From assembly GCA_019745975.1 (NCBI GenBank), contig JAIESQ010000004.1, forward strand, positions 1 through 60,388: a DNA stretch of 60,388 bases. The letters are read 5' to 3'. Source of the DNA: Pirellulales bacterium. Lineage in GTDB: Bacteria > Planctomycetota > Planctomycetia > Pirellulales > JAEUIK01. A program made the position numbers and the translations under genes. The notes under the pieces are model-generated. The model ran no database searches. It saw only the letters and a program-made list of their open reading frames with translations, and was not told where the DNA came from. Shown one piece after another: positions 7,860 through 43,205 of the stretch (the first letter of the stretch is position 1; each line of letters starts with the position of its first letter).

Positions 7860-7879
7860 ACTTGAACCACCTGCCTGCA

Positions 7880-9247: not shown

Positions 9248-9259
9248 AATTCGCGAAGT

Positions 9260-13328: not shown

Positions 13329-13376
13329 CCAATACCTAGATTGACAACCGCAGAGATTCGCCTTGAGGCCCAGAAG

Positions 13377-14612: not shown

Positions 14613-14645
14613 CAAGACTTCGGCTGGCCGGAAAGGGACATCACG

Positions 14646-18802: not shown

Positions 18803-20343
18803 GCCTGGCCGCGGTGATCGATCGACCCAAGCCCGCGCCGTCTTCGGAGTCTGCCAAAGCCGACGAGACGCGTTCGCAGGCGTGGCGCCAGTGGATAGGC
18901 GCCGCCTGTGTCACGCTCGCGGCGCTCGCGATCCGACTCGCCCTGATTAGCCATCAGAGTTTTTCGATGGACGAGATCTCCGAGCTCGCGATTGCCCATG
19001 GCGACCTGGAGTCGATCGTCTGGGAGCCAGATGGGTTCCCGCCCTTGTATCACGTTTTGCTGCATGGCTGGTTGAAGCTGTGGGGTAGCGATTCGGCGGC
19101 GCGGTGGTTGTCGGCGATCTTGGGCGCGGCTACGGTCCCCTTCGTCTGGCTCATTGGCCAGCAGGTTGGCGGCTTCCGCACGGCGCTCGCCAGCTCGCTG
19201 CTATTGGCCTTGCTGCCGATTCACGTCTACTACTGCCAGGAGGCTCGCGCCTATCCGCTCTACGCGCTGCTGGCGGCCGCCACACTTTGCTATTTCTTTC
19301 GTGCCATGGATGGCGATCGCCGGCGCGATTGGGCGTGGTACCTTCTGGCAAGCACGCTGGGCATGTACTGCCACTACTATTTTGCCAGTGTCATCGTGCT
19401 CGCCGGTTTGCTCTTGCTGGTCGAGCGGCGGGCGTGGCCGCGGCTGCGACGCGGGTTGACGGCCAACGTGCTTGTCGTCATCGCGAGTTTGCCACTGCTG
19501 TGGCTGCTCAAAAGCGATCTCGATCTGCAAACCGACTACTTCGCCAAGGCCTGGTTTGGGCTGCGAGAATTCGCCTTCACGTACCTTTCGATGTTCACCG
19601 GCTTCACGCTCGGTCCGTCGCTGCGCGAGATGCACCTGATGTCGACCAGCCAGATCGTGCGCGGGCTGTTGCCCTGGGCGGCAACGCTCGGCGCATCGAT
19701 CGCCTTTCTTGGCTGTGCGGGGCTGGCGACCATGCCGTCCGCGCGTTGGCGTGTGCGGCTGATGCTGCTGACGCTGGGCTCGGTGCTGCTGCTCGGTGTA
19801 ATTGGCAACTTGGCCAACGTCGGCTACATCGTACGCTACTCCAGTTGGGTGGTGATCCCCGTGGTCGTCATTTTGGGCCAAGGTCTCGCCATGGCGCGGC
19901 AGCGCCAGTTCGCGATCGCTTGCGGCGTTATTCTGACAGTCGGATTTGCCGCGGCATTCTATAACCATCATTTCCGCGATGCGTACGCCACTGAGGACTG
20001 TCGCCGGCTGGCCGAGTACCTAAGCGCATCCCCGGATCGAAAGTTGCCAGTCTTCGTTTCGTCGGGCTATATGGTCCATGCCGTCGCGTACTATCTGGGA
20101 GATGCCTGGGCGCCGGTGCAGCTTCCCAACAAGATCGACGACGACGCGGCACTCAAGACCGCCCGTGAGTTGATCGCGCACCACGCGCCTGCCGGTCAGC
20201 CGTTCTGGCTCGTCTATACGCGTGAATTCCATGGCGATCCGCGCGGAATATTCTTCGAGGCTGCGCGTGCTCGCTACGAAATCGGCCAACCGCAAGCGCG
20301 CTTCGCCGGCATTGCTCTCTATCGCGGCCAGGCGGCTCACTGA
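18799..20343 (+). CDS. Family 39-like integral membrane glycosyltransferase
   Basis: This 514-residue protein has about 10-12 membrane segments and the N-terminal luminal-loop aspartate motif SMDEISELA, followed by EPDGFPPLYHVLLHGWLKLWG, typical of the GT-C/PMT (GT39) family that uses polyprenyl-phosphate sugars. YYCQEARAYPLYALL is a second conserved family region. It probably decorates the exported glycan or an envelope component at the periplasmic face, using sugar donated by the DPM1-like domain encoded at 11655-13328. It is the last gene of the cluster and overlaps the deacetylase gene by four bases. Confidence 0.85.
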   Translation: MSLAAVIDRPKPAPSSESAKADETRSQAWRQWIGAACVTLAALAIRLALISHQSFSMDEISELAIAHGDLESIVWEPDGFPPLYHVLLHGWLKLWGSDSAARWLSAILGAATVPFVWLIGQQVGGFRTALASSLLLALLPIHVYYCQEARAYPLYALLAAATLCYFFRAMDGDRRRDWAWYLLASTLGMYCHYYFASVIVLAGLLLLVERRAWPRLRRGLTANVLVVIASLPLLWLLKSDLDLQTDYFAKAWFGLREFAFTYLSMFTGFTLGPSLREMHLMSTSQIVRGLLPWAATLGASIAFLGCAGLATMPSARWRVRLMLLTLGSVLLLGVIGNLANVGYIVRYSSWVVIPVVVILGQGLAMARQRQFAIACGVILTVGFAAAFYNHHFRDAYATEDCRRLAEYLSASPDRKLPVFVSSGYMVHAVAYYLGDAWAPVQLPNKIDDDAALKTARELIAHHAPAGQPFWLVYTREFHGDPRGIFFEAARARYEIGQPQARFAGIALYRGQAAH

Positions 20344-26860: not shown

Positions 26861-29800
26861 ATGCTCGTATCCGACATTCTGGTACTGACTCCACCCGGCC
26901 GGGTCGACGCTTCCCCAGCGATCGCCGCGGCCCGTGCTGGTGCCCGTGGCACGCTTGATTTGGAATACGCCACCGACGCGGCGGCCATCCGCGCGCAACT
27001 GGCCCGCCTGGTGCAATTCACGAAGGACGGCTTCGGCGTAAAGATTGCCACTCAGGGGGCCTTGAGTCTTGAAGATCTGCTCAAGGCGAGCGCTGGTCGG
27101 CTCGGGTGGGTGCTGTTGGCCAGCAACGAGACCGGCCTGCCGGCGTCGATCAAGCAACTGAACCATGCCGGCGTCGACGTCCTGCTCGAGGTAGTCAATA
27201 TCGACGAAGCGCGACAGGCCGCGCAGCTCCCCATTGCCGGGATCGTGCTCAAAGGGTGTGAGTCCTCGGGACGCATCGGCACCGAATCAGCTCTTCTGTT
27301 GGTTCAACGCTGGCGCCAGGAGGCCGCCCGGCTCAGCGTTAACCTCCCTTATTGGGTGCAAGGCGCCGTCGGATTCCGCTCGATCGCCGCCTGCCAAGTG
27401 GCCGGCGCCAAGGGTGTCGTGCTCGATAATCAGCTCCTCCTGGCACGCGAAACTCGCTTGAGCGATGCAACGCGCCAACGCCTGGAATCGTTCGACGGTA
27501 CCGAGACCTTGGTGCTGGGCGAGGGGATCGGCGCCGCATACCGCTTTCATAATCAGCCAGGCTCCAAGACGCTCGACGAACTCGAAGCAGCCCTACGCGC
27601 GATCGAGACGGGCTCATTGCCCGAAAGCCAGCGCCCGCAGGCGTGGCGGTCCGCGGTGCGCGCCGCGATCACAACGCACCCCGAGGAGGAGTTAATCCTC
27701 TGCGGCCAGGACGCCGCGCTGGCTCAGCCCTTTGCGCAGGCGTGCGTCTCGGTCGGAGGAATCGTGCAGCACCTCGCCGCCGAGTCCCAGCGCCTAATAG
27801 CGAGTGCGCAGCGGCATCAACCGCTGGCCGCTGGTTCTCCCTTGGCCGTCGAACATCGCACCCGCTACCCGCTCGTGCAGGGGACTGTGCCCGGTGACAC
27901 TGACACGCTGGATTTCGCATCAGCGGTTGCTGGCCAGGGTGGGTTACCGCTGGTCTCCTTGCGCTCGATGAATAAGACCGAAGCGACGCGGTATCTGCAG
28001 GACGCGGCGCGACGGATCAGCGAGTCGAACTGGGGTGTCAGCCTCACCGCTGGTGTGCCGGCCAACCTGCTCGCCCAGCAGATCGATGCGATCCTGGCGG
28101 TGCGCCCCGCATACACGGTGTTACCAGGGACCGTTACCGACCAGGTCAAGAAAATCGAAAAACGTGGCATCGTCGTTTACCGCAGCGTCGCTTCGCCGGA
28201 CAACCTTCGCAACCTGTTGCGCGATGGCGCGCGCCGGTTTGTTTTCGACCACGAAGCGGCCAGGCAGAGCGGCGCGACTTCGGGCGCCCTGCTTTGGGAA
28301 CCCCTCTACGACGTCCTCGTCGATTACATCGGCACGAGCCAGCGTGGCAGTGAACTGTGCGTGCTGTTTGCCGGCGGAGTGCACGACGCCCTGTCGGCAG
28401 CCATGGTTGCCGCGATGGCCGGATGCCTTGTCGAGCGCGGCATGAAGATCGGTGCTTTGCTGCGGTCTACCAAATCAGCAACGACTGAAGCCCCCCTGCA
28501 GACTTCGAACAATGGGCGGCAGCGCCAAGCGACACCCAAATGCGCCGGTTCGCAATCGGGTGCGATCGACCTGGCCGAGCTGTACAGCGCTATTTGTGAC
28601 GGTGCGACGCAACTGCTCGGAACCGACGGCGCTCCGGCGCCGGACCTGGCGGCGACGGAACCGCCTTGCGATATCGCCGTCGTCGGCATGTCGTGTTTCT
28701 ATCCTGGCGCCACGAGTCTGGGCGCCTATTGGCAGAACATTCTTAAGAAGGCCGTCGCGGTCAGCGAGATTCCGCCGACTCACTGGGACTGGCAACTGTA
28801 TTACGATCCCGATCCGCTGGCGAAGGACCGCATCATTTCCAAGTGGGGTGGGTTCCTTAGTGACATCCCCTTCGATCCACTGAAGTACGGTATTACGCCC
28901 GCCAGCATGAAGTCGATCGAGCCCCTGCAGCTCTTGCTGCTCGAGGCCGTGCATCACGCCTTGGTCGATGCGGGCTACGATCGGCGCCCCTTCTGCCGTG
29001 AACGAACCGCGGCCGTCGTCGGCATCGGCGGCGGCGGCAGCCCAATGGCCACTGCCTACGGATTCCGCACGTGCATGCGGCTGATCGATAATATTCCAGG
29101 CATGCCGGTCTCTTCGGACGCCGTGCTCTCGAATTGCGAAGAGGTCCTGCCCGAATGGACCGAAGATTCGTTCCCTGGCTTTCTGTTCAACGTGGCGGTC
29201 GGCCGCGTGGCCAATCGGTTCAACCTTGGTGGACCAAACTACGCCATCGATGCGGCGTGCGCCAGTTCGCTGGCAGCGCTGCAAGCCGCCATTCGCGAGC
29301 TTTCGGTCGGCACCAGCGACGTCGCCATTGCCATGGGCGCCGACACGGTGCAGACGCCGTTCGCCTACATGGCCTTCAGCAAGACCTACGCCTTGTCGCG
29401 CCAAGGCAAGAGCCGACCCTTCGACGCCGAAGCCGACGGCATCGTGTTGAGCGAAGGCATCGGCGTGCTCGTGCTCAAGCGGCTGGCCGATGCCGAACGC
29501 GACGGCGACCGCATTTACGCGGTCATCAAGGGAGTCGGCTCAGCCAGCGATGGTAAGGAGAAAGGGCTTACCGCGCCAAACGCCGCCGGCCAGAAACGGG
29601 CGCTCTCACGCGCCTACGCGCAAGCCCGCATCGAACCTAGTTGCGTCCGACTGATTGAAGCTCACGGCACCGGCACGGTCGTCGGCGACCGTACCGAAGC
29701 CGAAAGCATGGCCACCGTCCTCACGGCCGCCGGCGCCGCGCCGCGCTCGTGCGCGGTCGGTTCGGTTAAGTCGCTCATCGGTCACGCCAAGTGCGCGGCC

Positions 29801-32800
29801 GGACTGGCGGGCATGATCAAGGGCATCCTGGCCCTCGATCGCAAGGTCTTGCCCCCCACGTTAGTCGAAACGCCAAACTCGGCCGTGCAGTTCGAGGAAA
29901 GCCCGCTCTACCTCAACACCGAACCCCGCCCCTGGATCCAAGGCGACGGTCAGCCGCGCCGGGCCGGTGTCAGCGCATTCGGTTTCGGCGGCACCAACTT
30001 CCACGTCGTGCTGGAGGAGTATCGCGGCGACTACTTGCACCAGGTCCCCTCGGCCAGCACGCCGTGGCCGGTTGAGCTGGTTGTGTTTCGCCGGCGCACG
30101 CGCGATGAGCTCATAGCCGCCGTGCGCGAATGCCTGCAGGCCCTGGCTGCCGGCGCACGGCCAGCGCTCGTGGAGCTGGCGGCCGCCGCCTGGCATGCGA
30201 ATCCTCGGCAAGCCGATCTTCCCATCGTGGCAATCGTTGCCAGCTCGCTCGACGACTTACAAGCGAAGCTCTCGACGATCGAAAGTGTATTGCAGGGCTC
30301 GGCAACCACGCACCGCGATCCGCGAGGCTGCTACTTCGCCGAGCAACCCGGCCAGGCGGCTGGCAAGTTGGCACTAGTATTCCCGGGCCAAGGGTCGCAA
30401 TACCCGAATATGCTCGCCGAATTGGCGATCGCGTTTCCGAAGGTGCGCGAGGAACTCGATCGCGCCGAAACCGCGACGGCCGACAAGCTCCCGCGACCGC
30501 TCGGGTCCTACATCTATCCTCCGTCCGTGTTTGACGATGATCAACGCCGCGCCAATGACTCGGCCTTGGCCGATCCGACGGTTTCGCAACCTGCCATCGC
30601 GGCCGCCAGCCTGGGAATGTTGCGGCTCTTGGAGCGTTTGGGGCTAAAGGCCGAGTTGGCCGCGGGCCACAGTTTCGGCGAGTACGTGGCGCTCACCGCG
30701 GCAGGCGCGCTACCAGCCGATGCCATCTACCAACTCGCCTTGAAGCGCGGCGAGCTGGTTGCGAAGGCTGCGGCGGATGCCACCGGCGGCATGGTCGCCA
30801 TCAATGCCTCGGCCGACGACACCGAAACGTTGCTGGCGGGCCTGACCGATCTCTGGGTCGCCAATCAAAACGGCCCACAGCAAACGGTTGTTGCCGGCAC
30901 CGACCAGGCGCTCAGCAAATTGATCGAGCGCTGCCAGCAACAAGAACTGCGAGCAGTGCGTCTGGCTGTCGCTTGCGGATTTCATTCTCCGCTCGTGGCC
31001 AACGCGTCCGCCGAACTGGGCACATCGCTAGCCACCCAAGCCTGGGCAACCCCGCGGCAAACGGTCTATGCCAACACGACCGGTCAGGCATACGCCGGCG
31101 CCCCCGACGAGATGGTCGAGCAACTGACTCGCCATCTTTCATCGCCAGTTCGCTTCCAGGATGAAATCGAAGCCATGTACTCCGCGGGGGCACGCACCTT
31201 CGTCGAGGTCGGCCCGCACAACGTGCTCACCGGCTTGATCGACAACATCCTTGGCGATCGAGCGCATCTGGCCGTAGCCACTGATTTGCGCGGTCGCAAC
31301 GGCCTGACCCAGTTGGCCCATGCGATCGGGCAACTGCTCGTGCACGGTGTCGACCTGTGTCTCGATGAGTTGTACCAAGATCGGGTCGCGCACGCGTTCG
31401 ACCTGGCCGATCTATCGCGTCAGACGGTGGCCGCTTCGCACTCGCCCATGACCTGGATGGTCAACGGCGTGCGCTGCCGACCAATTGACGCTCCCGAACC
31501 CTCGCTGCTCGGTCAGCGACTACCAGCCAAGGAGGGCAAACCAAAGGCGGCAGCCACTGGGCCAAGCCGCGCAACTGAATCGAATCCACAGGGGAAAGTT
31601 CCCATGAGCTCTGTCATCCCGGCGCCTGCGGCGCCTGGCAACCATAACGGCAAACCGCATCCTTCGACGAACGGCGACAGCCATTTCTGGTCGGCGCCGG
31701 CGACGACCCCAACCACAGCGCCTTCGGCTGTGCCGCCCGCGCCTGCGATTGCGCCGGCCCCGGTACCCTCGGCCGCTCCCGTCGCACCAATCGCGCCGGT
31801 AGCCGCAGTTCCACCCGCAATTGTGCCGACGCTGCCAAACATCGCGCCCAGCGACGCCGCGACCCAGGTGGTGCTGCGTTATCAGGACTTGATGGAGAAG
31901 TTCCTCGAAGCGCAGCGCACGGTCATGCTCACCTATCTGCAGGGCCCAACAGCGCCCGCGGCGCCCGTAGCGCCGTCACAGGCGTCGTTCGTGCCCGTGG
32001 CGGTGGCACCAACGCCGATATCGGCTCCGCCCTTCGCCTCTGCGGCGCCAATGGCTCCACCAACGACCCCACCGATTGCGTTATCGCCGTCGCTCAACGG
32101 CACATCGCGCTGGCAGAATCTCTCTCACGAGAATTTCCCGGCGATGTCGGCTGCCGCCACCGTTGAAGCGCCCCCAGCGCCGCTTCAAACGCCCACCGCA
32201 AACGCTCCCGCCGCCAAGGGCGCGCCGGCGCAGCTCGATTTCGACGAGCTCCGCGATCGCCTGCTCGAGCTGGTCAGCAAGCGCACCGGTTATCCGCTCG
32301 CGATGCTCGACCTCGATCTCGACCTGGAGGCCGAACTTGGGATCGATTCGATCAAGCGCGTGGAGATTCTCAGCACGCTGGCCGAATCGCTCACCAGCGT
32401 CTCGAGCGACCTCGAGTCGAAGATCGTCCTCGAAAAGCTGACGGTCATCCGCACACTTGGCGGCATCCTCGACTACTTGAGGTCGGCGCTGGCCGACAAC
32501 AGTGAAGACACCGCCGCTGCCGGCGCCGAGGAAAGCGACGAATTTGCCGACGAGGAGATCGACGACGCGCCCAGCGAGACTGGCTCCCCCAGCCAACTCG
32601 AAGTACAACGCGCGGTCATTCATCTGACCGATGTCCCGCTCGACGCCGAGGCTGGCACCTCGATTTCGGGCGGCGCGGCGCTGATCACCGACGATGGTCG
32701 CGGGATCGCCCAAAAGCTCGCGGCGCGGCTCCACGCCGATGGGCTGAAGACTGCCCTGGTCCGCATGGTCGCGGGGGGTCAACCGCAGCTTGTTGACGGC

Positions 32801-34219
32801 ATCCTCAGCGGCGATCTGACCGATCTCGCTACCGTCAAGCGATTGCTGGCCCTGGCTCGCGAAGCGCTCGGCCCGATCGCCGGCCTGATTCACCTGCTCC
32901 CGCTGGCGCAGGCGTCGCCTGAGGTGGCGCCAGCCGCGCGAGCCTACCGCGAAACCAAGGCCCTCTATCTACTCGCGCAGCAGCTCGAGACTGACCTGCG
33001 CGAAATCGCCAATAAGAACAAGAATGCGGCCCTCCTGGCGGCGACTTCCCTAGGCGGAGGGCTTGGCTTTGATGATCCAACCGCGCACGAGCTCCCCGAC
33101 GAGTACTTCGCCGGGCATGGTGGAGTGATTGGCCTGGCAAAGTGCATCGCTCAGGAATGGAACGACGTCTTGGTCCGTGTCGTCGACTTCGATCCGGCAG
33201 CGGCGGCCGACCAGATCGTCGAGCACCTGCTGAGCGAAATCGCCGACCGCCGCGGTCCCGCCGAAATTGGCTACCTCGATGGCCGCCGCGTCACTTGGCA
33301 ACTGGGCCAGGCCGCGCTCGACGACGCGGAGCCCGTTGAGCCGGCCCCGCTGGACAAGGGCACGAAGATCGTGATCACGGGCGGCGCCCGCGGCATCACG
33401 GCCGCCATTGCCGTCGAATTGGCGCGGCGTTATCAGCCGACGCTGATCGTCGCCGGTCGCTCGCCGCTACCGCCGGAAACGGAGTCACCGCAAACGGTCG
33501 GCCTCGTTGAGCCTGGTGAATTGAAGGCCGCCTTGATCCAGCATCTTGGCAATGGCAAGCCGCCTCGGCCGGCTGAAGTTGAAAAAGCCTACCAGCGGCT
33601 GTTGCGGGAGCGCGAAATTCGCGACAACCTCGCCAGCATGCGAGCGGCCGGCGCGACCGTCGAGTATCACTCGGTCGACGTCCGCGACGAGCAGGCCGTC
33701 GCGCGACTGTTAGAAGACGTCTATGCTCGACATGGACGTATCGACGGCGTGCTGCATGGAGCTGGCGTCATTGAAGACAAGCTCCTGCGCGACAAGACTC
33801 CCGAATCTTTCGACCGTGTCTATCGCACCAAGGTCGACAGCGCCTATTCGCTCTGCCGGCACTTACGGCTCGACGAGCTGAAATTCCTGGTCTTCTTCGC
33901 GTCGCTGGCCAGCCGCTACGGCAATCGCGGCCAATCCGACTACGCGGCCGCCAACGAGGTCCTCAGCAAGCTCGCCGCGCAGCTCGACCGGCAGTTGTCA
34001 GCTCGCGTCTTCTCGGTCGCCTGGGGACCATGGTCCGGCGTCGGCATGGTGGCCGAACTGGAGCCGCACCTCACGCGTCGCGGGCTCAAGCTGATTTCGC
34101 CCGAAACGGGCCCTGCCTTCCTGATCGACGAGCTATTGCTCGGCCGCAAGGGCACCGCGGAGATCGTCGTCGCCGGCGGCGCGGAACGACTGGTGGCCCC
34201 GGCCGACGCTGCGGGCTGA
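26861..34219 (+). CDS. PUFA/polyketide synthase-like megasynthase: NMO-NMO-KS-AT-ACP-KR
   Basis: This large lipid synthase has 2452 residues. Two nitronate-monooxygenase-like TIM-barrel regions (about 1-255 and 345-560) precede a ketosynthase (about 600-1055) with active-site Cys800 in DAACASSLAAL, then EAHGTGT and VGSVKSLIGHAKCAAG. An acyltransferase (about 1168-1490) has Ser1271 in AAGHSFGEYVAL. A Pro/Ala-rich linker leads to one carrier domain with Ser1830 in ELGIDSIKRVEIL, and a ketoreductase (about 2165-2410) has ITGGARGITAAIA and the FASLASRYGNRGQSDYAAAN catalytic region. It resembles the secondary-lipid (Pfa/HglE-like) synthases reported in planctomycetes. The product is unknown. The start at 26861 has GAGGA six bases upstream. 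The NMO glycine-rich sites (GCESSGRIG, QSGATSG) lack the usual GGH histidine. Confidence 0.9.
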   Translation: MLVSDILVLTPPGRVDASPAIAAARAGARGTLDLEYATDAAAIRAQLARLVQFTKDGFGVKIATQGALSLEDLLKASAGRLGWVLLASNETGLPASIKQLNHAGVDVLLEVVNIDEARQAAQLPIAGIVLKGCESSGRIGTESALLLVQRWRQEAARLSVNLPYWVQGAVGFRSIAACQVAGAKGVVLDNQLLLARETRLSDATRQRLESFDGTETLVLGEGIGAAYRFHNQPGSKTLDELEAALRAIETGSLPESQRPQAWRSAVRAAITTHPEEELILCGQDAALAQPFAQACVSVGGIVQHLAAESQRLIASAQRHQPLAAGSPLAVEHRTRYPLVQGTVPGDTDTLDFASAVAGQGGLPLVSLRSMNKTEATRYLQDAARRISESNWGVSLTAGVPANLLAQQIDAILAVRPAYTVLPGTVTDQVKKIEKRGIVVYRSVASPDNLRNLLRDGARRFVFDHEAARQSGATSGALLWEPLYDVLVDYIGTSQRGSELCVLFAGGVHDALSAAMVAAMAGCLVERGMKIGALLRSTKSATTEAPLQTSNNGRQRQATPKCAGSQSGAIDLAELYSAICDGATQLLGTDGAPAPDLAATEPPCDIAVVGMSCFYPGATSLGAYWQNILKKAVAVSEIPPTHWDWQLYYDPDPLAKDRIISKWGGFLSDIPFDPLKYGITPASMKSIEPLQLLLLEAVHHALVDAGYDRRPFCRERTAAVVGIGGGGSPMATAYGFRTCMRLIDNIPGMPVSSDAVLSNCEEVLPEWTEDSFPGFLFNVAVGRVANRFNLGGPNYAIDAACASSLAALQAAIRELSVGTSDVAIAMGADTVQTPFAYMAFSKTYALSRQGKSRPFDAEADGIVLSEGIGVLVLKRLADAERDGDRIYAVIKGVGSASDGKEKGLTAPNAAGQKRALSRAYAQARIEPSCVRLIEAHGTGTVVGDRTEAESMATVLTAAGAAPRSCAVGSVKSLIGHAKCAAGLAGMIKGILALDRKVLPPTLVETPNSAVQFEESPLYLNTEPRPWIQGDGQPRRAGVSAFGFGGTNFHVVLEEYRGDYLHQVPSASTPWPVELVVFRRRTRDELIAAVRECLQALAAGARPALVELAAAAWHANPRQADLPIVAIVASSLDDLQAKLSTIESVLQGSATTHRDPRGCYFAEQPGQAAGKLALVFPGQGSQYPNMLAELAIAFPKVREELDRAETATADKLPRPLGSYIYPPSVFDDDQRRANDSALADPTVSQPAIAAASLGMLRLLERLGLKAELAAGHSFGEYVALTAAGALPADAIYQLALKRGELVAKAAADATGGMVAINASADDTETLLAGLTDLWVANQNGPQQTVVAGTDQALSKLIERCQQQELRAVRLAVACGFHSPLVANASAELGTSLATQAWATPRQTVYANTTGQAYAGAPDEMVEQLTRHLSSPVRFQDEIEAMYSAGARTFVEVGPHNVLTGLIDNILGDRAHLAVATDLRGRNGLTQLAHAIGQLLVHGVDLCLDELYQDRVAHAFDLADLSRQTVAASHSPMTWMVNGVRCRPIDAPEPSLLGQRLPAKEGKPKAAATGPSRATESNPQGKVPMSSVIPAPAAPGNHNGKPHPSTNGDSHFWSAPATTPTTAPSAVPPAPAIAPAPVPSAAPVAPIAPVAAVPPAIVPTLPNIAPSDAATQVVLRYQDLMEKFLEAQRTVMLTYLQGPTAPAAPVAPSQASFVPVAVAPTPISAPPFASAAPMAPPTTPPIALSPSLNGTSRWQNLSHENFPAMSAAATVEAPPAPLQTPTANAPAAKGAPAQLDFDELRDRLLELVSKRTGYPLAMLDLDLDLEAELGIDSIKRVEILSTLAESLTSVSSDLESKIVLEKLTVIRTLGGILDYLRSALADNSEDTAAAGAEESDEFADEEIDDAPSETGSPSQLEVQRAVIHLTDVPLDAEAGTSISGGAALITDDGRGIAQKLAARLHADGLKTALVRMVAGGQPQLVDGILSGDLTDLATVKRLLALAREALGPIAGLIHLLPLAQASPEVAPAARAYRETKALYLLAQQLETDLREIANKNKNAALLAATSLGGGLGFDDPTAHELPDEYFAGHGGVIGLAKCIAQEWNDVLVRVVDFDPAAAADQIVEHLLSEIADRRGPAEIGYLDGRRVTWQLGQAALDDAEPVEPAPLDKGTKIVITGGARGITAAIAVELARRYQPTLIVAGRSPLPPETESPQTVGLVEPGELKAALIQHLGNGKPPRPAEVEKAYQRLLREREIRDNLASMRAAGATVEYHSVDVRDEQAVARLLEDVYARHGRIDGVLHGAGVIEDKLLRDKTPESFDRVYRTKVDSAYSLCRHLRLDELKFLVFFASLASRYGNRGQSDYAAANEVLSKLAAQLDRQLSARVFSVAWGPWSGVGMVAELEPHLTRRGLKLISPETGPAFLIDELLLGRKGTAEIVVAGGAERLVAPADAAG

Positions 34220-34231
34220 TCGGATCGCACG

Positions 34232-37200
34232 ATGCAACTCACGATGACCACGAACACGGCCGTGGCGGTCGGGCAGGCAGACGCGGCCACTGCAACTCGC
34301 GCGCCTTGGCCGACCGAGCTCTTGGTGCTGTCCGGCACCGATCGGGTTGAGCTGTCGAGTCGCGCGGCGCGCCTGGCGGAGTTCTGTCGCCGCCATCCAG
34401 CGACCTCGCTGGCCGAATTGGCGTATTCGCTCCACCTCACGCTCGAGGCGGGGACCGAGCGGCTGGCAATCGTGGCGGCCTCGCTCGACGAGCTCGTCGC
34501 GCGATTGACGCGCGCCGCCGAGCGCTTGGCGAGCGCCGATTGCACGCAGATTCACGATGGCGTCGGCATTTACTACACAGCCAGTCCGCTAACACATGCC
34601 GGACGCATCGCCTGGCTCTTCCCCGGCGAAGGCGCACAGTACCCCGACATGCTGGGAGACCTGGCGGCCTGCTTCCCGATCGTGCGCGATTGCGTAATGG
34701 AAATGGGTCAGTTCGATCGTGGCAGCGACGCTGCCATTTCGATCAGCGATTTGCTCGTGCTGCCACCCGGGGCCAGCGCCGATACGCGCGCGGCCGCCGA
34801 GCAGCAGCTACGTGGCATCGACGACGGCATCTGCGCCGTGCTCGTTGCCGACGGGGCAATCGCCAGGCTTCTGCGGCAGTTTGGCCTGCAGCCCGACGTG
34901 CTCGGCGGTCACAGCGCCGGCGAACTGGCAGCGCTCTCCACGGCCGGCTGCTTCGACACCGCTCGGAATTCACTTCAGCTCGGCACGATGCTCAAGGAGT
35001 TCGCCAAACAGGGGGACGCCGCCGACGGCGCCAATGCGGCGCTCTTGGCAATCGGCGCCTCGAAAGAGAAGCTGACCGCCATCATTCAGTCGCTGGCGTC
35101 GCAACCCGGCCGCGAGCCCTTGGCGACCAAACTCCACATTGGCATGGATAATTGTCCGCATCAGGTCGTGTTGGTCGGCACACCGGCGGCGGTCGCGCAA
35201 ATTGAGCCCGAACTGGCGGCCCGCAAACTGATGTACGAGCGGCTCCCCTTCAATCGGCCTTACCACACCGAGTTGTTTCGCCCCTACTTGGGGCCGCTCA
35301 AGCAGATGTTCGAGGCGATCGATTTTCACTCGCCGCGGACCACCGTCTACTCCTGCAGCACCGGCCAGCCTTTTCCGACCAACCCTGCTGAGTTGCGCGA
35401 GTTAGCCCTCAATCACTGGGCCATGCCGGTCGAATTCCCGGCGATGATTCGCGCGATGCACGCCGACGGCGTGCGGCTGTTCGTCGAAGCCGGACCGCGC
35501 GGCAACCTCACCGCCTTCGTGCACGACATTCTCCGCGACAAGCCGTTCTTAGCCGTGTGCGCCAGCGTCCAGCGACGCCATGGCCTGACGCAGTTGCAAC
35601 ATCTGTTAGGCCAGCTCGCCGCGCAGCAAGTCTCGCTGCGGCTCGATCCGCTGTTCGAGAATCGAGCCTTGAAGAAGGTCGAATGGAATCTTCAGCCGGC
35701 GACATCGTCCGCCACAAGCACCAAGATGGATAGCCCGAAGTCCGTGGACGATCTGCCGACGAATGGTCGCGGACAAATCTCGCCCGCGATGCCTGCAATT
35801 CCGGCCCCGCAGCCGATTGTTCACCAGCCAACGCCGCCGATGTCGACACCGATGATGACGTCCACCACGATCGTGCCGCCACCGATCAGCGATCCCCGCG
35901 CGGCCGTTGTTACTCGGCACTGGGAACTGATGGAGCGTTGGCTCGACGACCAGCAGCAGGTCGTCAAGCAATTTCTGGCGCGCAACCGGACGGGAACACT
36001 CACGGCGTCGGCGCCGACCAGCCAGGCAATCGCCGCGCCATCCGTTGCCCCTGTGCCCTCTGCGCCATCGCTCGCGCCATCGCTCGCGCCATCGCTCGCG
36101 CAATCGTCGCTACCGACTCCGGTATCGCCCCCACCGCAACCCACCGCACGGCTCGAATTCCCGCTGCTGGGAACGATCGTCGAGCACGTCGCGGGCAAGG
36201 AGCTCGTCGCCCGACGCCGCCTTGACCTCGCCGAAGACCACTACGCCGACGAACACACGGTCGGCGGTCGCGATGTCAGCAAGGTCGATCCCCAGCAACG
36301 CGGCCTGCCCGTAGTGCCGATGACCTTCATCCTCGAGATGATGGCGGAAACCGCAACCCAGCTCTTCCCAGGCAAGGTCGCCCGTGCGATCAACGACATC
36401 ATGTTGATGCGCTGGCTGGCGATCGAGGAAGAGCCTGGCACGGTCGAGCTGCGCGCCAAAGTTCAGCCCATTCGCGCGACACCGGGCGCGAATCCACCCG
36501 CCGACGAAGTGCACGTCCGTATCGAGGTTCGCGACCTGGGGACCGACAGCACGCCCCGCAACGAGCCGCAACAGTTGGCGGCTGTCGGAACCGTCGTCCT
36601 CGCCGATGCTTATCTGCCGGCGCCGCGCGCCCGAGCGGTCGTCTCGCCGTCGCAGGCGCGCCCCCCGAAGGTCACGGTGGACGACACCTACAAAAGCTTG
36701 TTCCACGGCCCGCTATTTCAGGGCGTGCGCTCCCTTGATGTCATCGACGACCAGGGAATCGAAGCCACGATCGAAGTGCAGCCGCGTCGCGGGCTGTTCA
36801 CCAGCAACGCCAACCCAAACTTTCTGCTCGACCCGGTCACCATCGACATCGGCATGCACCCCGGCGCCTCCTGGCATCTCGAGCAGCCTGATCAAACCGG
36901 CCGCGTCCTCTTACCGTGCGCGCTGCACCGCATCGAGCTCTTTGGCCCGCGCCCACCCGAGGGGGCAGTGTTGCGGGCCACGGCCTGGGTGCTGTCGGCC
37001 TCGCAGCGCCAATTCACGCAGTCGGGCGAGCTGAGCACCACCGATGGTCGCGTGTGGTGCCGCTTGAGCGAGATCAAGTGCTGGCGGTTCTACATGCCGT
37101 TCGGGGAAGTGAATTTCAACGGCCCCAAGGACCAGTACTTCATCAGCAAGCCATGGCGCCCCTGGAGTGCCGCGGCCGACCAAGCTGGTCAAGTCGCGCC

Positions 37201-37987
37201 CCAGAATGGCCACGCCGGGAAGACCAAAACGACGATCTTCGAGCGCCAGGACGAAGGCGAACGAGCGGACCGACAGCTTGTGCGGGTCGTGCCTACCCCC
37301 GACATGCATCAACCCGGCCTGCAGTGTGCCGCCGCGCGTGTCACGCTCTCGCCCGATGAGTATCGCGAGTTCAACCTGGTGCCCTCAGGTGACGAACGTG
37401 CCGAGTGGTTCCTCGGTCGAGTAACCGCCAAGGAGGCAGTGCGCATTCTCTGGCGACGCATGCACGGCGAGCGCCTCTACACGGCCGACGTCGAAGTGGC
37501 GATCGACGACCAAGGGCGACTTCGCTGCCAGCCTCGCGCTGTGGCTCGCCCCGTGGATTTCCCCACCGTGGCTCTGGCAGCCAGCGCCGGCGAATTCGCC
37601 GCTTTGGCCACGAAAACCGGCATCGCCGGCCTGGGGCTGGTGCGCGTCGACAAGCGCGGCGCCCTGCCGAAAACCGCGCCGGGCGCGCGCCCACTGTTGT
37701 CCAGCGCCGAAGTTGCCATCGCGCGTCAGGCAGCCAAGCAACACCAGCTCGATGCCGCCGCGCCCCGCCTGGTTGCTGCCCGCCAAGCCATCGAGAATGC
37801 CCTTGGCCCGCGCGCCGCCGGCGCTGCCAAGCTCGAATGCCGTGCGCTCGGGGCCGATGGCACCGTGCTCGTCGCTGCCAAGAACATCGCGCTCGACGCG
37901 ATCAAACCCGGCCAACTGCTCAAGGTCGCCACGGCGCGCGACGACTACCTGGTCGTCGCTACCTGGTGTGGAGAGACGCAGGCGTGA
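34232..37987 (+). CDS. Synthase subunit: KS-AT linker, AT, double-hotdog DH and PPTase-like tail
   Basis: This 1251-residue partner starts where a KS would end: residues 20-105 resemble the KS-AT linker, but no ketosynthase precedes it. The acyltransferase (about 120-470) has Ser228 in LGGHSAGELAAL and the NRPYHTELF histidine region. A Pro/Ala-rich linker is followed by a dehydratase of two hotdog halves: His675 in DEHTVGG with the downstream LPVVPMTFILEMMAE, and the second-half aspartate in LDPVTIDIGMHPGASW. Residues from about 1050 (EWFLGRVTAKEAVRILW) look like a phosphopantetheinyl transferase, but the later SISH, GID and KEA positions read ALAA, GLV and ARQA, suggesting loss of activity. 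It lies 12 bases behind the megasynthase gene and is probably its obligate partner. Confidence 0.87.
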   Translation: MQLTMTTNTAVAVGQADAATATRAPWPTELLVLSGTDRVELSSRAARLAEFCRRHPATSLAELAYSLHLTLEAGTERLAIVAASLDELVARLTRAAERLASADCTQIHDGVGIYYTASPLTHAGRIAWLFPGEGAQYPDMLGDLAACFPIVRDCVMEMGQFDRGSDAAISISDLLVLPPGASADTRAAAEQQLRGIDDGICAVLVADGAIARLLRQFGLQPDVLGGHSAGELAALSTAGCFDTARNSLQLGTMLKEFAKQGDAADGANAALLAIGASKEKLTAIIQSLASQPGREPLATKLHIGMDNCPHQVVLVGTPAAVAQIEPELAARKLMYERLPFNRPYHTELFRPYLGPLKQMFEAIDFHSPRTTVYSCSTGQPFPTNPAELRELALNHWAMPVEFPAMIRAMHADGVRLFVEAGPRGNLTAFVHDILRDKPFLAVCASVQRRHGLTQLQHLLGQLAAQQVSLRLDPLFENRALKKVEWNLQPATSSATSTKMDSPKSVDDLPTNGRGQISPAMPAIPAPQPIVHQPTPPMSTPMMTSTTIVPPPISDPRAAVVTRHWELMERWLDDQQQVVKQFLARNRTGTLTASAPTSQAIAAPSVAPVPSAPSLAPSLAPSLAQSSLPTPVSPPPQPTARLEFPLLGTIVEHVAGKELVARRRLDLAEDHYADEHTVGGRDVSKVDPQQRGLPVVPMTFILEMMAETATQLFPGKVARAINDIMLMRWLAIEEEPGTVELRAKVQPIRATPGANPPADEVHVRIEVRDLGTDSTPRNEPQQLAAVGTVVLADAYLPAPRARAVVSPSQARPPKVTVDDTYKSLFHGPLFQGVRSLDVIDDQGIEATIEVQPRRGLFTSNANPNFLLDPVTIDIGMHPGASWHLEQPDQTGRVLLPCALHRIELFGPRPPEGAVLRATAWVLSASQRQFTQSGELSTTDGRVWCRLSEIKCWRFYMPFGEVNFNGPKDQYFISKPWRPWSAAADQAGQVAPQNGHAGKTKTTIFERQDEGERADRQLVRVVPTPDMHQPGLQCAAARVTLSPDEYREFNLVPSGDERAEWFLGRVTAKEAVRILWRRMHGERLYTADVEVAIDDQGRLRCQPRAVARPVDFPTVALAASAGEFAALATKTGIAGLGLVRVDKRGALPKTAPGARPLLSSAEVAIARQAAKQHQLDAAAPRLVAARQAIENALGPRAAGAAKLECRALGADGTVLVAAKNIALDAIKPGQLLKVATARDDYLVVATWCGETQA

Positions 37988-38277
37988 TCGGCGCGACGTC
38001 CACCACCGACGAGATCGTCGCCGAACTGGCAAACCTGTTGCGCGACTTTGAGGGACGCTACTACTCCGACCCCATCGGCCCCGACACGCGGTTCTTTGGC
38101 GACCTGGGGTTTTCGTCGATCGATGCCGTGCTGCTCGGCGAGAAAATCGAAACGCTCTGCGGCCGATCCTTGCCATTTCACGAGCACGCGGCGCAACTGG
38201 CCAACAGCGGCGCGACCGATCTGACCGTTGGCCAGATCGCCGCGTTCCTGCAAAACTGCCTGGCCGATCGAGCCTGA
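37984..38277 (+). CDS. Freestanding acyl carrier protein
   Basis: This 97-residue carrier protein has the phosphopantetheine site in FFGDLGFSSIDAVLLGEKIE (the serine just before ID), an acidic four-helix pattern and a C-terminal VGQIAAFLQ helix. It starts at GTG 37984, overlapping the preceding stop codon (GTGA), so it is translationally coupled to the AT-DH subunit. The same frame stays open far upstream inside that gene, but only this portion is carrier-like. It probably serves as an additional or shuttle ACP for the synthase, whose own chain contains a single ACP. Confidence 0.88.
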   Translation: MIGATSTTDEIVAELANLLRDFEGRYYSDPIGPDTRFFGDLGFSSIDAVLLGEKIETLCGRSLPFHEHAAQLANSGATDLTVGQIAAFLQNCLADRA

Positions 38278-38289
38278 GGGCCTAGCAAG

Positions 38290-39129
38290 ATGCCGCGCCT
38301 CGCGCTCGACAATTTCGAGTGTCACTACCAGCAGCACGGCGCCGGGCCCGATGTCGTCCTCGTGCACGGCTTCACCAGCAATCAGGCGATGTGGCTCTTC
38401 TCAGGCATCGTCACGACACTGGCGACGCGATTTCGCGTCACCACTTACGACTTGCGAGGGCATGGACTTAGCGGCGCGCCCGCGGCCGGCTATACCGCCG
38501 ACGTGGTCGCCCGTGATTTCCGCTTGTTGCACGAGCGGCTGGGGGTGGGGCCAGCGTACGTCGTCGGGCATAGTTTCGGCGGTGTCGTCGCCATGCAGGC
38601 CGCGCTCGACGAACCGCGGCGGATCGCCGGCATCATACTCTGCGATACCTACTTCCCCGGTCTGGCTCACCTCGAACCCAATATGGAGAATGCGGAAGTC
38701 TGGACCGGGTTGCGCTCCAGCTTTCAAGCGACTGGCGTGGATATCGGAGCGGCGGTCGATTTTCGGCGGTTGTTCGACGCGCTCCCCGGACTGACCGTGG
38801 ACCAGCGCGACATCCTTCAGGCGAAGCTCGGAGCGCCGGGCGTCCGCTGGCTCGCCCAACTAGGACCGTTGACCGGTACGACTGCCGCCGAGGATGTCTT
38901 TCAGGCCGCGGGTCTCACCGCCGAGCGCATCTGTCAGGTTTCGCAGCCGGTTGTGGCGCTCTACGACGAGCGGACGCCCTTTGCCGCCACCCGCGATTTT
39001 CTCGCCACCCATCTGCCGAACTGCCGAGTCGACACCGTCCCCGGATCGGGCCACTTGGCGCTGCTGGAAAACCCAGCGGGCTTCGTCGAGCGCGTCGAGC
39101 GAAACCTCGATTTGCTGGCCGGCCGATAA
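38290..39129 (+). CDS. Alpha/beta-fold hydrolase, candidate chain-releasing esterase
   Basis: This 279-residue hydrolase has the oxyanion loop DVVLVHGFTSN, the nucleophile elbow VVGHSFGGVVAM, a late acidic strand VVALYDERTPF and the catalytic histidine in PGSGHLALLENPAGF. It is the last gene of the plus-strand synthase operon, 12 bases behind the ACP gene. Since neither megasynthase protein contains a thioesterase domain, it is the best local candidate for releasing the finished acyl chain. This is inferred from position; the family also includes many unrelated esterases and dehalogenases. Confidence 0.85.
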   Translation: MPRLALDNFECHYQQHGAGPDVVLVHGFTSNQAMWLFSGIVTTLATRFRVTTYDLRGHGLSGAPAAGYTADVVARDFRLLHERLGVGPAYVVGHSFGGVVAMQAALDEPRRIAGIILCDTYFPGLAHLEPNMENAEVWTGLRSSFQATGVDIGAAVDFRRLFDALPGLTVDQRDILQAKLGAPGVRWLAQLGPLTGTTAAEDVFQAAGLTAERICQVSQPVVALYDERTPFAATRDFLATHLPNCRVDTVPGSGHLALLENPAGFVERVERNLDLLAGR

Positions 39130-40993: not shown

Positions 40994-41983
40994 TTAGAAC
41001 AACGAATCCTCGTGCGGGCGGCGCATCACGACCGTTTCCCAAGCATATTTCAACGGCGCCGCGAGCGTGAATGCCAGGCAAACCAGCGGCACCGCGTACC
41101 CGGGGACCGTCAACACCGCCACGGCGCCGAACAGCAGCCACACCACGTGCGCGAAGCTGCGATGCCCACGAAACACCTGGTTGACCACATGCGGGTATGG
41201 GATGCGCGAAACCATTAGTAGCGCAACCACCAGCGCGTAAAACGGCAAGATCATCTGTAGCGCCAGGTCGACGCGCTCGACGTACTCGGGCGGGTTGGCC
41301 TTGTTGTGCAGCGTGTAGAACAACAACGCGAAACTGGCGATCGTGGCGGCGGCCGCTGGCGATGGCAGTCCACTAAAGCTCATGTGATCGTCGTCTTGCG
41401 TGACCTCGACGTTAAACCGCGCCAGCCGCAGCGCGGCGCAGGCGGCATACGCGGCGGCGATCACCCATACCTCGCGATACTCATAGGTGAAGTTCGGACA
41501 CATCTTCACCAGCAGAAAGCCGGGGGCGACGCCGAACGTGACCACGTCGCACAAGCTGTCGAGCTGGCCGCCAAAGTCGCTCGTCGTGCGGCTCAACCGG
41601 GCGACGTGGCCGTCGAGGGCATCGAAGGCCATGGCCAGAAAAATCAGCCACGCGCTGATCATCACATTCGTGCGGTCGCCGGCGTCGCCGAGCCGCGTGA
41701 CGGGCTTGGCCGCCCGCTCGCCTTCGACGGAGACCTCGACGACCGGGGCTTCGATCCGCGCGGCCACCACGATACTGAAGAACCCACACACCAGGTTGGC
41801 CAGCGTGAACAGCGTAGGCAGCACGGCGATGGTGCGAATGCGTCGCATCGAACGACGTTCTCCGGGCCTGCGCGAGCGTTCGGGCCGTTCGGTCTTTTCG
41901 GTGGCTTCGGGCGTGGCCGGCTGCGCCGGCGATGCGAAGCCCGACGCGGTGCCGCGTTCGTGCAAGGGGTCGCGACTAACCAC
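40994..41983 (-). CDS. pssA: CDP-diacylglycerol--serine O-phosphatidyltransferase
   Basis: This integral membrane enzyme makes phosphatidylserine. The CDP-alcohol phosphotransferase signature D-G-x2-A-R-x8-G-x3-D-x3-D is present in FDALDGHVARLSR followed by DFGGQLDSLCDVVTFG. Several hydrophobic segments follow, including the TIAVLPTLFTLANLVCGFFS start of the domain. The first 45 residues are hydrophilic and Pro/Glu/Arg-rich, so translation may instead begin at the internal MRRIRT. It overlaps the psd gene by eight bases, forming the classical PS synthase/PS decarboxylase pair. Confidence 0.92.
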   Translation of the reverse strand: MVSRDPLHERGTASGFASPAQPATPEATEKTERPERSRRPGERRSMRRIRTIAVLPTLFTLANLVCGFFSIVVAARIEAPVVEVSVEGERAAKPVTRLGDAGDRTNVMISAWLIFLAMAFDALDGHVARLSRTTSDFGGQLDSLCDVVTFGVAPGFLLVKMCPNFTYEYREVWVIAAAYAACAALRLARFNVEVTQDDDHMSFSGLPSPAAAATIASFALLFYTLHNKANPPEYVERVDLALQMILPFYALVVALLMVSRIPYPHVVNQVFRGHRSFAHVVWLLFGAVAVLTVPGYAVPLVCLAFTLAAPLKYAWETVVMRRPHEDSLF

Positions 41984-42974
41984 GGCTGGCTCCTGGTTCA
42001 GTGTGATTCGCGCGGCGCGGCCGCACCAGCACGGTTTCGCCCGCTTTCACGCGCTGGCCCACTTGCACGGCCACTTCGAACTCGTCGTCCGCCGGCAAAA
42101 TCAGCTCGGTGCGCGAGCCGAGCTTGATCATGCCGAATTTCTCGCCGCGAGCGACCGACTGACCCGGGCGCAAATCGCAGACGATCCGCCGGGCGATCGC
42201 CCCAGCGATCTGCCGCACCACGAATCGCTGCCCGGCCGGCAGAGCGGGCTCGTCGGCCACGCAGCCGATCCACATGTTCTCGTTCACAAGCGCACTTTTG
42301 GGATCGAGCGCGTTGAGAAATGGGCCGGGCGTGTACCGCAGCTCGAGCACCCGGCCGGCCACGGGCGCTCGGTTAATGTGTACGTTGAATATCGACAGGA
42401 AGATGCCGATCCGCGTCGCCGGGCCGCCGATGAAGTCGTCGTGCTCCAGTTGCGTGATCTCAGCAATCTTGCCATCGGCCGGCGAAATCCACAGCCCAGC
42501 TTGCCGCGGAACGCGCCGCGGCGGATCGCGAAAAAACCAGATCACGAGTCCCGCGCACACCACCGGTGCGATCGCCAGATACCAGAAGCCAGCGATCACC
42601 GCCGCCACGGCCAGCGCCACCAGCGGCCAGGTCATCAACTGCAACTCGGCCAGGCCCCAGCGGGCGAAAGGGATGCGCTCGCGCCAGGCGAAGGGATCGA
42701 CCGTGGCCGGCCAATGGCAATCGGTCTGGTTGCGGTAGAACTTCAGGTCGCGCGAGTCGAGCACCTCGTGCGGGCATCCGGTCGGCTCGCCGACGCGCAG
42801 CTCGCGCATCCGCTTCACAAAGCCGGCGCGAAATGTCTTCAAATACCAGCGCCGCACGCGACCCCAGGCCAGCTCGATGCGCAGGCAGGTGCCGCCGCCC
42901 GGCTGCGTGCTGGTGACTCCCGGCGGCAGCCGCTGCACTTCGGCGTGACTGGGCAAGGTTTCGACGTGGGACAT
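41976..42974 (-). CDS. psd: Phosphatidylserine decarboxylase proenzyme
   Basis: The enzyme decarboxylates phosphatidylserine to phosphatidylethanolamine. The signatures are SPADGKIAEI, FLSIFNVHINRAPVAG and the self-cleavage region FGMIKLGSRTEL, where the serine would become the pyruvoyl group. An N-terminal extension of about 110 residues precedes two hydrophobic segments (LVALAVAAVIAGFWYLAIAP). I set the start at 42974 (332 aa); the longer open frame to 43196 runs through a palindrome cluster and is not plausible. The downstream overlap with pssA indicates an operon. Confidence 0.9.
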   Translation of the reverse strand: MSHVETLPSHAEVQRLPPGVTSTQPGGGTCLRIELAWGRVRRWYLKTFRAGFVKRMRELRVGEPTGCPHEVLDSRDLKFYRNQTDCHWPATVDPFAWRERIPFARWGLAELQLMTWPLVALAVAAVIAGFWYLAIAPVVCAGLVIWFFRDPPRRVPRQAGLWISPADGKIAEITQLEHDDFIGGPATRIGIFLSIFNVHINRAPVAGRVLELRYTPGPFLNALDPKSALVNENMWIGCVADEPALPAGQRFVVRQIAGAIARRIVCDLRPGQSVARGEKFGMIKLGSRTELILPADDEFEVAVQVGQRVKAGETVLVRPRRANHTEPGASRG

Positions 42975-42983
42975 GGGGTGCAC

Positions 42984-43054
42984 GGGGACTGGAGTCGGTT
43001 CCGGGGAAGGTTTCCCGAGCGATTTGATTGTGCTCGGAAACGACTCCTGTCCCC
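42984..43054. repeat. Dispersed palindromic repeat, copy 2
   Basis: The arms at 42984-43003 and 43035-43054 are related to GGGGACAGGAGTCGTTTCCG and its complement, with two mismatches. A smaller CCGAGC/GCTCGG stem lies inside the loop. It sits 10 bases upstream of the psd start codon, within the likely leader. Confidence 0.75.
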
Positions 43055-43127
43055 CTCGGGTGGAGTCGACGAGCCGGCGCTTCACCCTACCCGACCGGCG
43101 GGGGCGGATACTAGGGGCGCGGCGGGG

Positions 43128-43205
43128 CATGGGCTTCCAGCCCATGACGAACACGGCCAGGATGGCCGTGCCACGGAGACGATCAACCGGGCTCAATGAG
43201 CCCGG
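43128..43205. repeat. Cluster of three perfect hairpins
   Basis: Three consecutive perfect inverted repeats occupy the gap between PIG-L and psd: 43128-43146 (CATGGGCT stem, 3-base loop), 43152-43170 (CACGGCC stem, 5-base loop) and 43187-43205 (CCGGGCTC stem, 3-base loop). They lie next to copy 2 of the palindrome. Confidence 0.8.

What the first reader, a model, noticed from the sequence alone, without database searches (positions are those of the whole stretch)
26861..34219. Lipid megasynthase with two NMO-like barrels fused ahead of the ketosynthase
The order NMO-NMO-KS-AT-ACP-KR builds potential enoyl-reductase-type FMN domains into the front of a PUFA-synthase-like enzyme. The second barrel appears to be a diverged partner of the first, and both lack the GGH histidine. 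The four-gene operon may make an unusual long-chain lipid.
Basis: partly seen in the sequence, partly recalled or inferred. Interest (0 to 1): 0.75.

Follow-up and report, generated by a model that had tools for sequence, protein, structure and literature searches.

The report
Lipid synthase with dead enoyl-reductase barrels
A bacterial lipid-making mega-enzyme of a widespread type has kept its working parts except one built-in reduction domain, which has decayed; the same loss happened separately in a second synthase of the same genome, which also carries a stray stand-alone reductase that may do the job instead.

Summary
The fusion is not rare: it occurs across Planctomycetota, Proteobacteria, Cyanobacteria and other phyla, including a Beijerinckia synthase with ars-type (alkylresorcinol) gene layout. 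In 144 distinct family sequences barrel 1 lacks the catalytic histidine in 142, whereas barrel 2 is FabK-like with GGH in 139.

This copy is one of the five exceptions. Its barrel 2 lost the motif-I methionine, the GGH histidine, the phosphate-binding GT and the lid, and is 40% identical to orthologues that share 72% with each other. The other twelve regions diverge normally. A distant paralogue in the same genome lost the same parts independently (one-clade tree rejected, p-AU 8e-35). The genome also has a stand-alone PfaD with no synthase nearby, not found in its six family-mates; the nearest PfaDs are also orphans, in two genomes whose synthases have a damaged barrel 2. Counterexamples exist.

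Best reading: pseudo-reductase barrels kept as scaffold; reduction either supplied in trans by PfaD (like LovB/LovC) or absent, giving a polyene. The trans step is inferred, and a trans-AT-like PKS in the genome is a rival client.

The parts
26861..34219 (+). Gene 1: tandem-barrel KS-AT-ACP-KR synthase, 2452 aa
   Evidence: TIGR02813 PfaA 1077.6 bits (cut-off 1010.1)
26861..27829 (+). Barrel 1 (residues 1-323), superposes on whole FabK; KGCESSGR where FabK has the GGH motif (family-wide pseudo-barrel)
27863..28471 (+). Barrel 2 (residues 335-537), degenerate FabK-like enoyl reductase without lid
27878..27889 (+). Former motif I: QGTV instead of QGPM
28253..28273 (+). Former motif III: EAARQSG instead of ECGGHVG
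28472..28561 (+). Disordered linker in place of the lid of relatives (pLDDT under 50 at residues 537-567)
28670..29863 (+). KS domain (residues 604-1001); DAACASS, EAHGTGT and GHAKCAAG motifs intact
30377..31246 (+). AT domain (residues 1173-1462), GHSFGE intact
32255..32392 (+). ACP domain (residues 1799-1844), LGIDSIK
33368..34036 (+). KR domain (residues 2170-2392)
34232..37987 (+). Gene 2: second AT, double-hotdog DH, C-terminal PPTase-like region (PPTase match weak)
37984..38277 (+). Gene 3: stand-alone ACP, GTG start overlapping gene 2 by 4 bases
38290..39129 (+). Gene 4: alpha/beta hydrolase (possible thioesterase), GHSFGG

Best explanation
The operon encodes an iterative type I fatty-acid/polyketide synthase of a widespread tandem-barrel family. 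In that family barrel 1 is a non-catalytic partner and barrel 2 the FMN enoyl reductase, probably paired within one chain. In this genome barrel 2 has become a pseudo-reductase: most of its FMN-contacting motifs, its catalytic histidine and its lid are gone, while a barrel-shaped remnant stays in frame beside a complete, conserved KS-AT-ACP-KR / AT-DH / ACP / hydrolase set. The synthase should still condense, ketoreduce and dehydrate, but not reduce enoyl-ACP in cis. Most likely the reduction is now done in trans by the genome's stand-alone PfaD (contig C192), which could serve both this synthase and its equally degenerate paralogue (contig C132), as LovC does for LovB. Shown by sequence: the loss, its restriction to one domain, its independent repetition, and the presence of an orphan PfaD. 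Inferred: loss of activity, retention as scaffold, pairing with PfaD, and the product (a long-chain lipid of unknown structure).
For: Motif survey: GGH in 139 of 144 distinct rows that cover both barrels; among rows found without any motif pattern, 73 of 78. Domain-specific decay: barrel 2 window-to-orthologue identity 40% against 72% among orthologues (ratio 0.56), the other 12 regions 0.91-1.05, and the KS, AT, ACP, KR, DH, second ACP and hydrolase motifs that I displayed intact (7 orthologues from 6 genomes). Two losses in one genome: window groups with intact L011 and L012, paralogue L020 with intact L013 and damaged L215; one-clade tree rejected, p-AU 8.4e-35. Stand-alone PfaD: TIGR02814 642.5 bits (cut-off 449.25). 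It aligns to Shewanella PfaD 4yx6 from residue 5, but to the trans-AT reductases DfnA and MlnA only from 70-71, in line with the PfaD-specific N-terminal extension described in PMC13311796; its match to PfaD 6lkc, however, starts at 58. No match to any part of the operon lies in the 40 kb read around it. It is present in 1 of 7 family genomes. Its nearest kin (78%, 71%; clade 100/100) are orphans in G784 and G781, whose synthases read GGP in barrel 2. Precedents: GbnE H198V in the same motif abolishes reduction, and stand-alone ERs act in trans (PMC10921412, abstract and passages); LovB works with LovC (PMC7870829, start of abstract in the listing only).
Against: The PfaD link rests on few genomes. 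Of five genomes with a non-GGH barrel 2, three have an orphan PfaD; G001 (80% complete) and G866 (85%) show none. G871 has intact barrels and a PfaD without a KS in the 15.9 kb held around it, although that stretch is cut by the contig end. G891 and G269 have orphan PfaDs and are not among the matches. The PfaD lies on another contig than the operon. The genome also holds a trans-AT-like PKS, a class known to use stand-alone ERs. For the window synthase itself the association is a single genome; the other two orphan-PfaD cases concern C132-type synthases, and L020 may share part of its decay with L215 by descent (92/61 support). Flavin binding and activity were not measured. PfaD itself is common in the class (140 of 397 genomes).
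Confidence: 0.47

Rival explanations
1. No enoyl reductase acts on this synthase. With KR and DH only, it iterates to a conjugated polyene released by the hydrolase, like enediyne PKSs and RerA/RerB.
For: The remaining domain set (KS, AT, ACP, KR, DH, hydrolase) is intact and resembles RerA (KS-AT-ACP-ACP-KR-DH) with RerB (PPTase, unknown domain, TE), which makes polyenes up to C22 nonaenes (PMC11563203, passages).
Against: The rest of the operon shows no accelerated change, and a stand-alone PfaD is present in this genome alone of its family. Neither point excludes a polyene.
Confidence: 0.33
2. Reduction is done in trans by another reductase (FabI-type, a trans-AT ER or an unrecognised enzyme), and the orphan PfaD serves the trans-AT-like PKS on contigs C117, C86 and C35.
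For: Those contigs carry KS-KR-ACP-methyltransferase modules with only one AT match.
Against: The PfaD resembles PUFA-type PfaD more than trans-AT reductases (573.6 and 559 bits to PfaD 6lkc and 4yx6, 420 and 379 to DfnA and MlnA) and its tree neighbours are PfaDs mostly next to PfaA-like synthases (no trans-AT reductase was in that tree).
Confidence: 0.12
3. Barrel 1 has taken over catalysis with a non-canonical active site.
For: Barrel 1 is about as conserved as elsewhere (ratio 0.92) and superposes on all of FabK; two relatives, L151 and L161, carry GGH in barrel 1.
Against: The window's barrel 1 has KGCESSGR, VQGA and VVLDNQ where GGH, AGG and GT would be.
Confidence: 0.06
4. The gene is decaying as a whole, or the change is an assembly artefact.
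For: No second genome of this genus was among the seven of the family, so the sequence has no independent check.
Against: Frame open for 2452 codons; all other domains normal; the same parts lost in a second, distant synthase.
Confidence: 0.02

Closest known systems
ArsA-type synthase of the arsABCD alkylresorcinol operon (Azotobacter vinelandii; Shulse and Allen Type P)
   Same: [quoted passage not shown] Type P lists Azotobacter vinelandii and Beijerinckia indica (PMC3098273, passages). ArsA is given as the synthase of C23-C25 fatty acids (PMC4824345, passages).
   Different: The window belongs to another clade, no PF00195 match was found in its genome, and its barrel 2 is degenerate. The A. 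vinelandii sequence itself was not examined, nor the domain drawings of PMC3098273.
PfaA/PfaD PUFA synthase systems (secondary lipid Types A-L)
   Same: Passes the TIGR02813 PfaA cut-off; barrels related to PfaD/FabK reductases.
   Different: One ACP match instead of a tandem set, no second KS protein in the operon, reductase fused and degenerate.
Schizochytrium PUFA synthase ERb/ERc heterodimer (PMC13311796; abstract, sections 2.1, 2.5, 2.6.1 and Discussion read)
   Same: Two related TIM-barrel reductase domains that pair.
   Different: There the two are on separate chains and both keep the catalytic histidine.
LovB/LovC (lovastatin) and gladiolin GbnE
   Same: A synthase that relies on a separate reductase acting in trans (PMC7870829, start of abstract in a listing; PMC10921412, abstract and passages). 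That LovB also carries an inactive cis ER is recalled, not read here.
   Different: LovC and the LovB ER are of the zinc-ADH (MDR) type (recalled); pairing here is inferred only.
RerA/RerB of Rhodococcus erythropolis PR4 and enediyne PKSs
   Same: Iterative synthase set without an enoyl reductase (PMC11563203, passages).
   Different: No N-terminal barrels in the description seen; different gene layout.

Membership tests
Tandem-barrel KS-AT-ACP-KR synthase family | Two N-terminal FabK/NMO-like barrels before the KS | tested here: met
Tandem-barrel KS-AT-ACP-KR synthase family | KS-AT-ACP-KR order | tested here: met
Tandem-barrel KS-AT-ACP-KR synthase family | GGH and lid in barrel 2 (GGH in 139 of 144 members) | tested here: not met
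   Usual rather than defining, as four other members of the 144 also lack GGH
Active FabK/PfaD-type FMN enoyl reductase (barrel 2) | TIM-barrel fold | tested here: met
   Z 20.9 to FabK residues 1-197; predicted model on an alignment of relatives
Active FabK/PfaD-type FMN enoyl reductase (barrel 2) | Catalytic histidine of xEAGGH | tested here: not met
   EAARQSG
Active FabK/PfaD-type FMN enoyl reductase (barrel 2) | Motif-I methionine, GT phosphate contact and lid | tested here: not met
   QGTV, RS, lid columns 8% filled; the FAGG phosphate motif is kept
Active FabK/PfaD-type FMN enoyl reductase (barrel 2) | FMN binding and enoyl reduction in vitro | not testable with these tools
   needs protein
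PfaA PUFA synthase | NCBIfam TIGR02813 above cut-off | tested here: met
   1077.6 against 1010.1 bits, best stretch residues 603-1509
PfaA PUFA synthase | Tandem ACP repeats | tested here: not met
   one PP-binding stretch in gene 1
PfaA PUFA synthase | Companion PfaC-type KS-CLF protein and PfaD in the cluster | tested here: not met
   gene 2 has no KS match; PfaD is on another contig
arsABCD alkylresorcinol operon | Type III PKS partner genes | tested here: not met
   no PF00195 match in the genome at E 0.001
LovB/LovC-like pseudo-ER plus trans-ER pair | Degenerate cis reductase | tested here: met
LovB/LovC-like pseudo-ER plus trans-ER pair | Stand-alone reductase in the genome | tested here: met
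   PfaD at G000:C192
LovB/LovC-like pseudo-ER plus trans-ER pair | The reductase acts on this synthase | not testable with these tools
   needs an assay
Polyene iterative PKS (enediyne or RerA type) | KR and DH without enoyl reductase | tested here: inconclusive
   cis reductase lost, but a trans reductase is possible
Polyene iterative PKS (enediyne or RerA type) | KS of the enediyne/RerA clade | not tested
   no such KS was placed in the trees

The most novel reading that the evidence does not exclude
A lineage gained a stand-alone PfaD by horizontal transfer, after which the built-in reductase barrels of two distantly related lipid synthases in the same genome decayed in parallel, both by losing the active site and cleanly dropping the lid while keeping a barrel-shaped scaffold. 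This would be a bacterial FMN-barrel counterpart of LovB/LovC, with one trans reductase shared by two synthases.
Probability: 0.33. Interest if true: 0.66.

Novelty: new variant of a known kind. Interest (0 to 1): 0.52.

Why it matters
Whether a synthase makes saturated lipids or polyenes is usually read from its domains. Here a domain search reports reductase-type barrels that are probably dead, so the predicted product would be wrong. The case also gives a natural, testable example of how a reductase may move from cis to trans, with one candidate partner protein and two candidate client synthases.

Tried and rejected
Unusual fusion as the main point: rejected. The 130 rows of the tree all carry KS columns, so fusion to a KS holds for those.

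Both reader-noted losses as a shared family trait: true for barrel 1 (H in 2 of 144), false for barrel 2.

Window and paralogue degenerate by common descent: rejected, p-AU 8.4e-35. The quick 130-row tree gave the same placement.

Contaminant contig for the PfaD: not supported but not excluded. C192 has GC 0.65 and tetranucleotide correlation 0.96 to the window, like other contigs of the genome (0.94-0.97), but two related genomes score 0.94-0.96 as well, so the test is weak.

Other NMO-family hits in the genome as spare reductases: by inspection of the ORFs, C199 looks like a dihydroorotate dehydrogenase and C148 like HisF (names recalled, not searched). C190 was not identified (one search failed).

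Rows dropped before counts: one search reduced 175 rows to 149 distinct and 144 with both barrels and motif III (L217, which reads GGP, lacks barrel 1 and is outside the 144). Four further rows with a short lid are not counted as lid losses: L166, L187 and L190 stop at or near contig ends and L054 is split by one in-frame stop. The 80 named loci were found by patterns that include QGPMTRVS and so lean towards intact copies, hence the separate count of 78. For the tree, 166 rows with KS became 134 and then 130 after gap and identity filters; one search used 33 of these that I chose.

PfaD presence was tested in 35 genomes that I chose and one class sample; KS neighbours were checked in 42 fetched loci, not in all 140 genomes.

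Absence from print: in searches no listed title or abstract start names a tandem-barrel fusion or its degeneration. The full texts were not read, the library holds open-licence papers only, and the figures and supplement of PMC3098273 were not seen, so its domain drawings may show the fusion.

Added nothing: promoter and terminator patterns (at chance level), a wasted call on 20 residues; one ORF (L145:17458-18792), wrongly chosen; alignment A3, made for a second structure and not used. The FoldSeek-based second look covered barrel 1 only, so barrel 2 was folded alone.

Full report
What is there. The gene read from ATG 26861 to 34219 encodes 2452 residues with the order barrel 1, barrel 2, KS, AT, ACP, KR. 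Three closely spaced genes follow: AT-DH with a weak C-terminal PPTase match, an ACP with a GTG start that overlaps by four bases, and an alpha/beta hydrolase.

The fusion is common. A search with the first 580 residues matched 7 of 57 relatives, 5 of 7 genomes of the family, 14 of 392 of the phylum, 18 of 396 of the order and 78 of 397 of the class. Each count includes the window's own genome, and all but the family count include some weak single-barrel hits. In Beijerinckia mobilis the tandem-barrel synthase is followed by two type III polyketide synthases, the layout of the ars operon whose ArsA makes the long acyl chains of alkylresorcinols (PMC4824345, passages). Shulse and Allen place Azotobacter vinelandii and Beijerinckia indica in one type, P (PMC3098273, passages and one part of seven of the text). 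I did not examine the Azotobacter sequence.

What the two barrels normally are. Aligned to a profile made without the window, 175 rows reduce to 149 distinct and 144 that cover both barrels and motif III. At the position of the catalytic histidine barrel 1 has R, W, F, L or others, and H in only 2. Barrel 2 has GGH in 139 of 144. In the 78 rows found without any motif pattern the count is 73. The five exceptions are the window, its own paralogue L020, L015 (GGY, genome G001), L212 (GGP, G784) and L215 (GGP, G781). L217 (G866) also reads GGP but lacks barrel 1 and is outside the 144. So barrel 1 looks like a standing non-catalytic partner and barrel 2 like the reductase. The contacts used to judge this (motif I Met, AGG, GGH, GT, lid) are those described for PfaD-type reductases in PMC13311796 (sections read), where two such domains form a heterodimer.

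What happened here. In the window barrel 2 reads QGTV for QGPM, EAARQSG for ECGGHVG and RS for GT, and the lid, 118 profile columns long, is replaced by a short disordered linker. FAGG is kept. The paralogue on contig C132 lost the same elements and in addition has FAVG for FAGG. No other distinct row lacks the lid except four that stop at or near contig ends or, in one case, at an in-frame stop. The barrel-2 identity of the window to seven orthologues is 40%, against 72% among them; the other twelve regions have ratios of 0.91 to 1.05, and the KS, AT, ACP, KR, DH and hydrolase motifs displayed are intact. The decay is thus confined to one domain. AlphaFold2 still predicts a barrel of eight strands for it, which matches FabK residues 1-197 and stops before the rest of the 307-residue FabK chain. 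The model was built on an alignment of intact relatives, so it shows that the remnant fits the fold, not that it is stable.

Two losses in one genome. The tree from barrel 1 and KS columns puts the window with L011 and L012 of the same family, both intact, and the paralogue with L013 (same family, intact) and L215 (130-row quick tree; careful 33-row tree). Forcing the two degenerate copies together is rejected (p-AU 8.4e-35). L020 and L215 may share part of their decay (92/61 support).

A candidate replacement. The genome encodes a 539-residue PfaD with an intact ADSGGH motif (TIGR02814). It aligns from residue 5 to the Shewanella PfaD 4yx6, from 58 to PfaD 6lkc, and from 70-71 to two trans-AT reductases; PfaDs are said to carry an N-terminal extension that PKS reductases lack (PMC13311796). 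No relative of any part of the operon lies within the 40 kb read around it. Of 35 chosen genomes 16 have a PfaD, but in the family only this one of seven does. In the class sample 140 of 397 genomes have one, so PfaD as such is common. Of the 42 PfaD loci examined (some are pieces of one gene), 36 have a match to the KS-AT query within the flank of at most 1.5 kb, a few of them weak. The six without are this genome, G784, G781, G871, G891 and G269; for the last three none lay in the 15.9-19.9 kb held, which for G871 is cut by the contig end. For G784 and G781 none lay in 17.4 and 29.9 kb. The PfaDs of this genome, G784 and G781 form one clade (100/100), and G784 and G781 are the genomes with GGP synthases. 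Family-mates without PfaD and a nearest relative in another order suggest horizontal gain (inference). Against the link: G871 has an orphan PfaD and intact barrels; G001 and G866, with damaged barrels and 80-85% completeness, show no PfaD; G891 and G269 are not among the matches.

How it most likely works. Mutating the same histidine in the stand-alone reductase GbnE abolishes reduction while the protein keeps FMN and still suppresses iteration of its module (PMC10921412, passages), a precedent both for inactivity and for keeping a dead barrel. I infer that the window synthase condenses, reduces the keto group and dehydrates, and that enoyl reduction is either supplied by PfaD in trans or missing. 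In the second case the remaining set resembles RerA/RerB, which makes long polyenes (PMC11563203, passages). My own weights are about 0.93 that barrel 2 is inactive as a reductase, 0.47 for the whole reading with PfaD in trans and 0.33 for a polyene. The trans-AT-like PKS of the same genome is a real alternative client for PfaD.

Verdict. The new element is a precise, repeated loss of a built-in reductase in an otherwise intact synthase, together with an orphan stand-alone reductase. I rate it a new variant of a known kind.

Noticed in passing
G000:C117 (L284), C86 (L221), C35 (L287): A large modular PKS with KS-KR-ACP-methyltransferase modules and only one AT match, that is, trans-AT-like, in the same genome.
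   Followed up: partly
G000:C162 (L285:1284-9215, minus strand): A highly reducing PKS with KS, DH, zinc-ADH-type ER, KR and ACPs.
   Followed up: no
L250 (G886) and L251 (G944): PfaD lies in open frames of 2671 and 2654 residues with a KS match next to it, suggesting in-frame fusion of PfaD to the following synthase.
   Followed up: no
L151 and L161: The only two of 144 rows whose barrel 1 carries GGH, so two active barrels may be the ancestral state.
   Followed up: no
L054 / L286 (G742:C1): A tandem-barrel gene interrupted by a single in-frame stop in the lid region.
   Followed up: no
window 6729-20343, + strand: Polysaccharide gene cluster: sugar transferase, Wzy-like ligase, WecG and family 2 glycosyltransferases, PMT-like transferase (two of the ORFs tested had no Pfam match).
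   Followed up: partly
window 40994-43196, - strand: CDP-alcohol phosphatidyltransferase and phosphatidylserine decarboxylase genes lie downstream of the operon on the other strand.
   Followed up: no
L240 and L241 (G784, G781): The orphan PfaD has a divergently oriented neighbour with MHGLMMDYPLTIQ near its start in both genomes; it looks like an acyl-CoA ligase, a label recalled and not searched.
   Followed up: no
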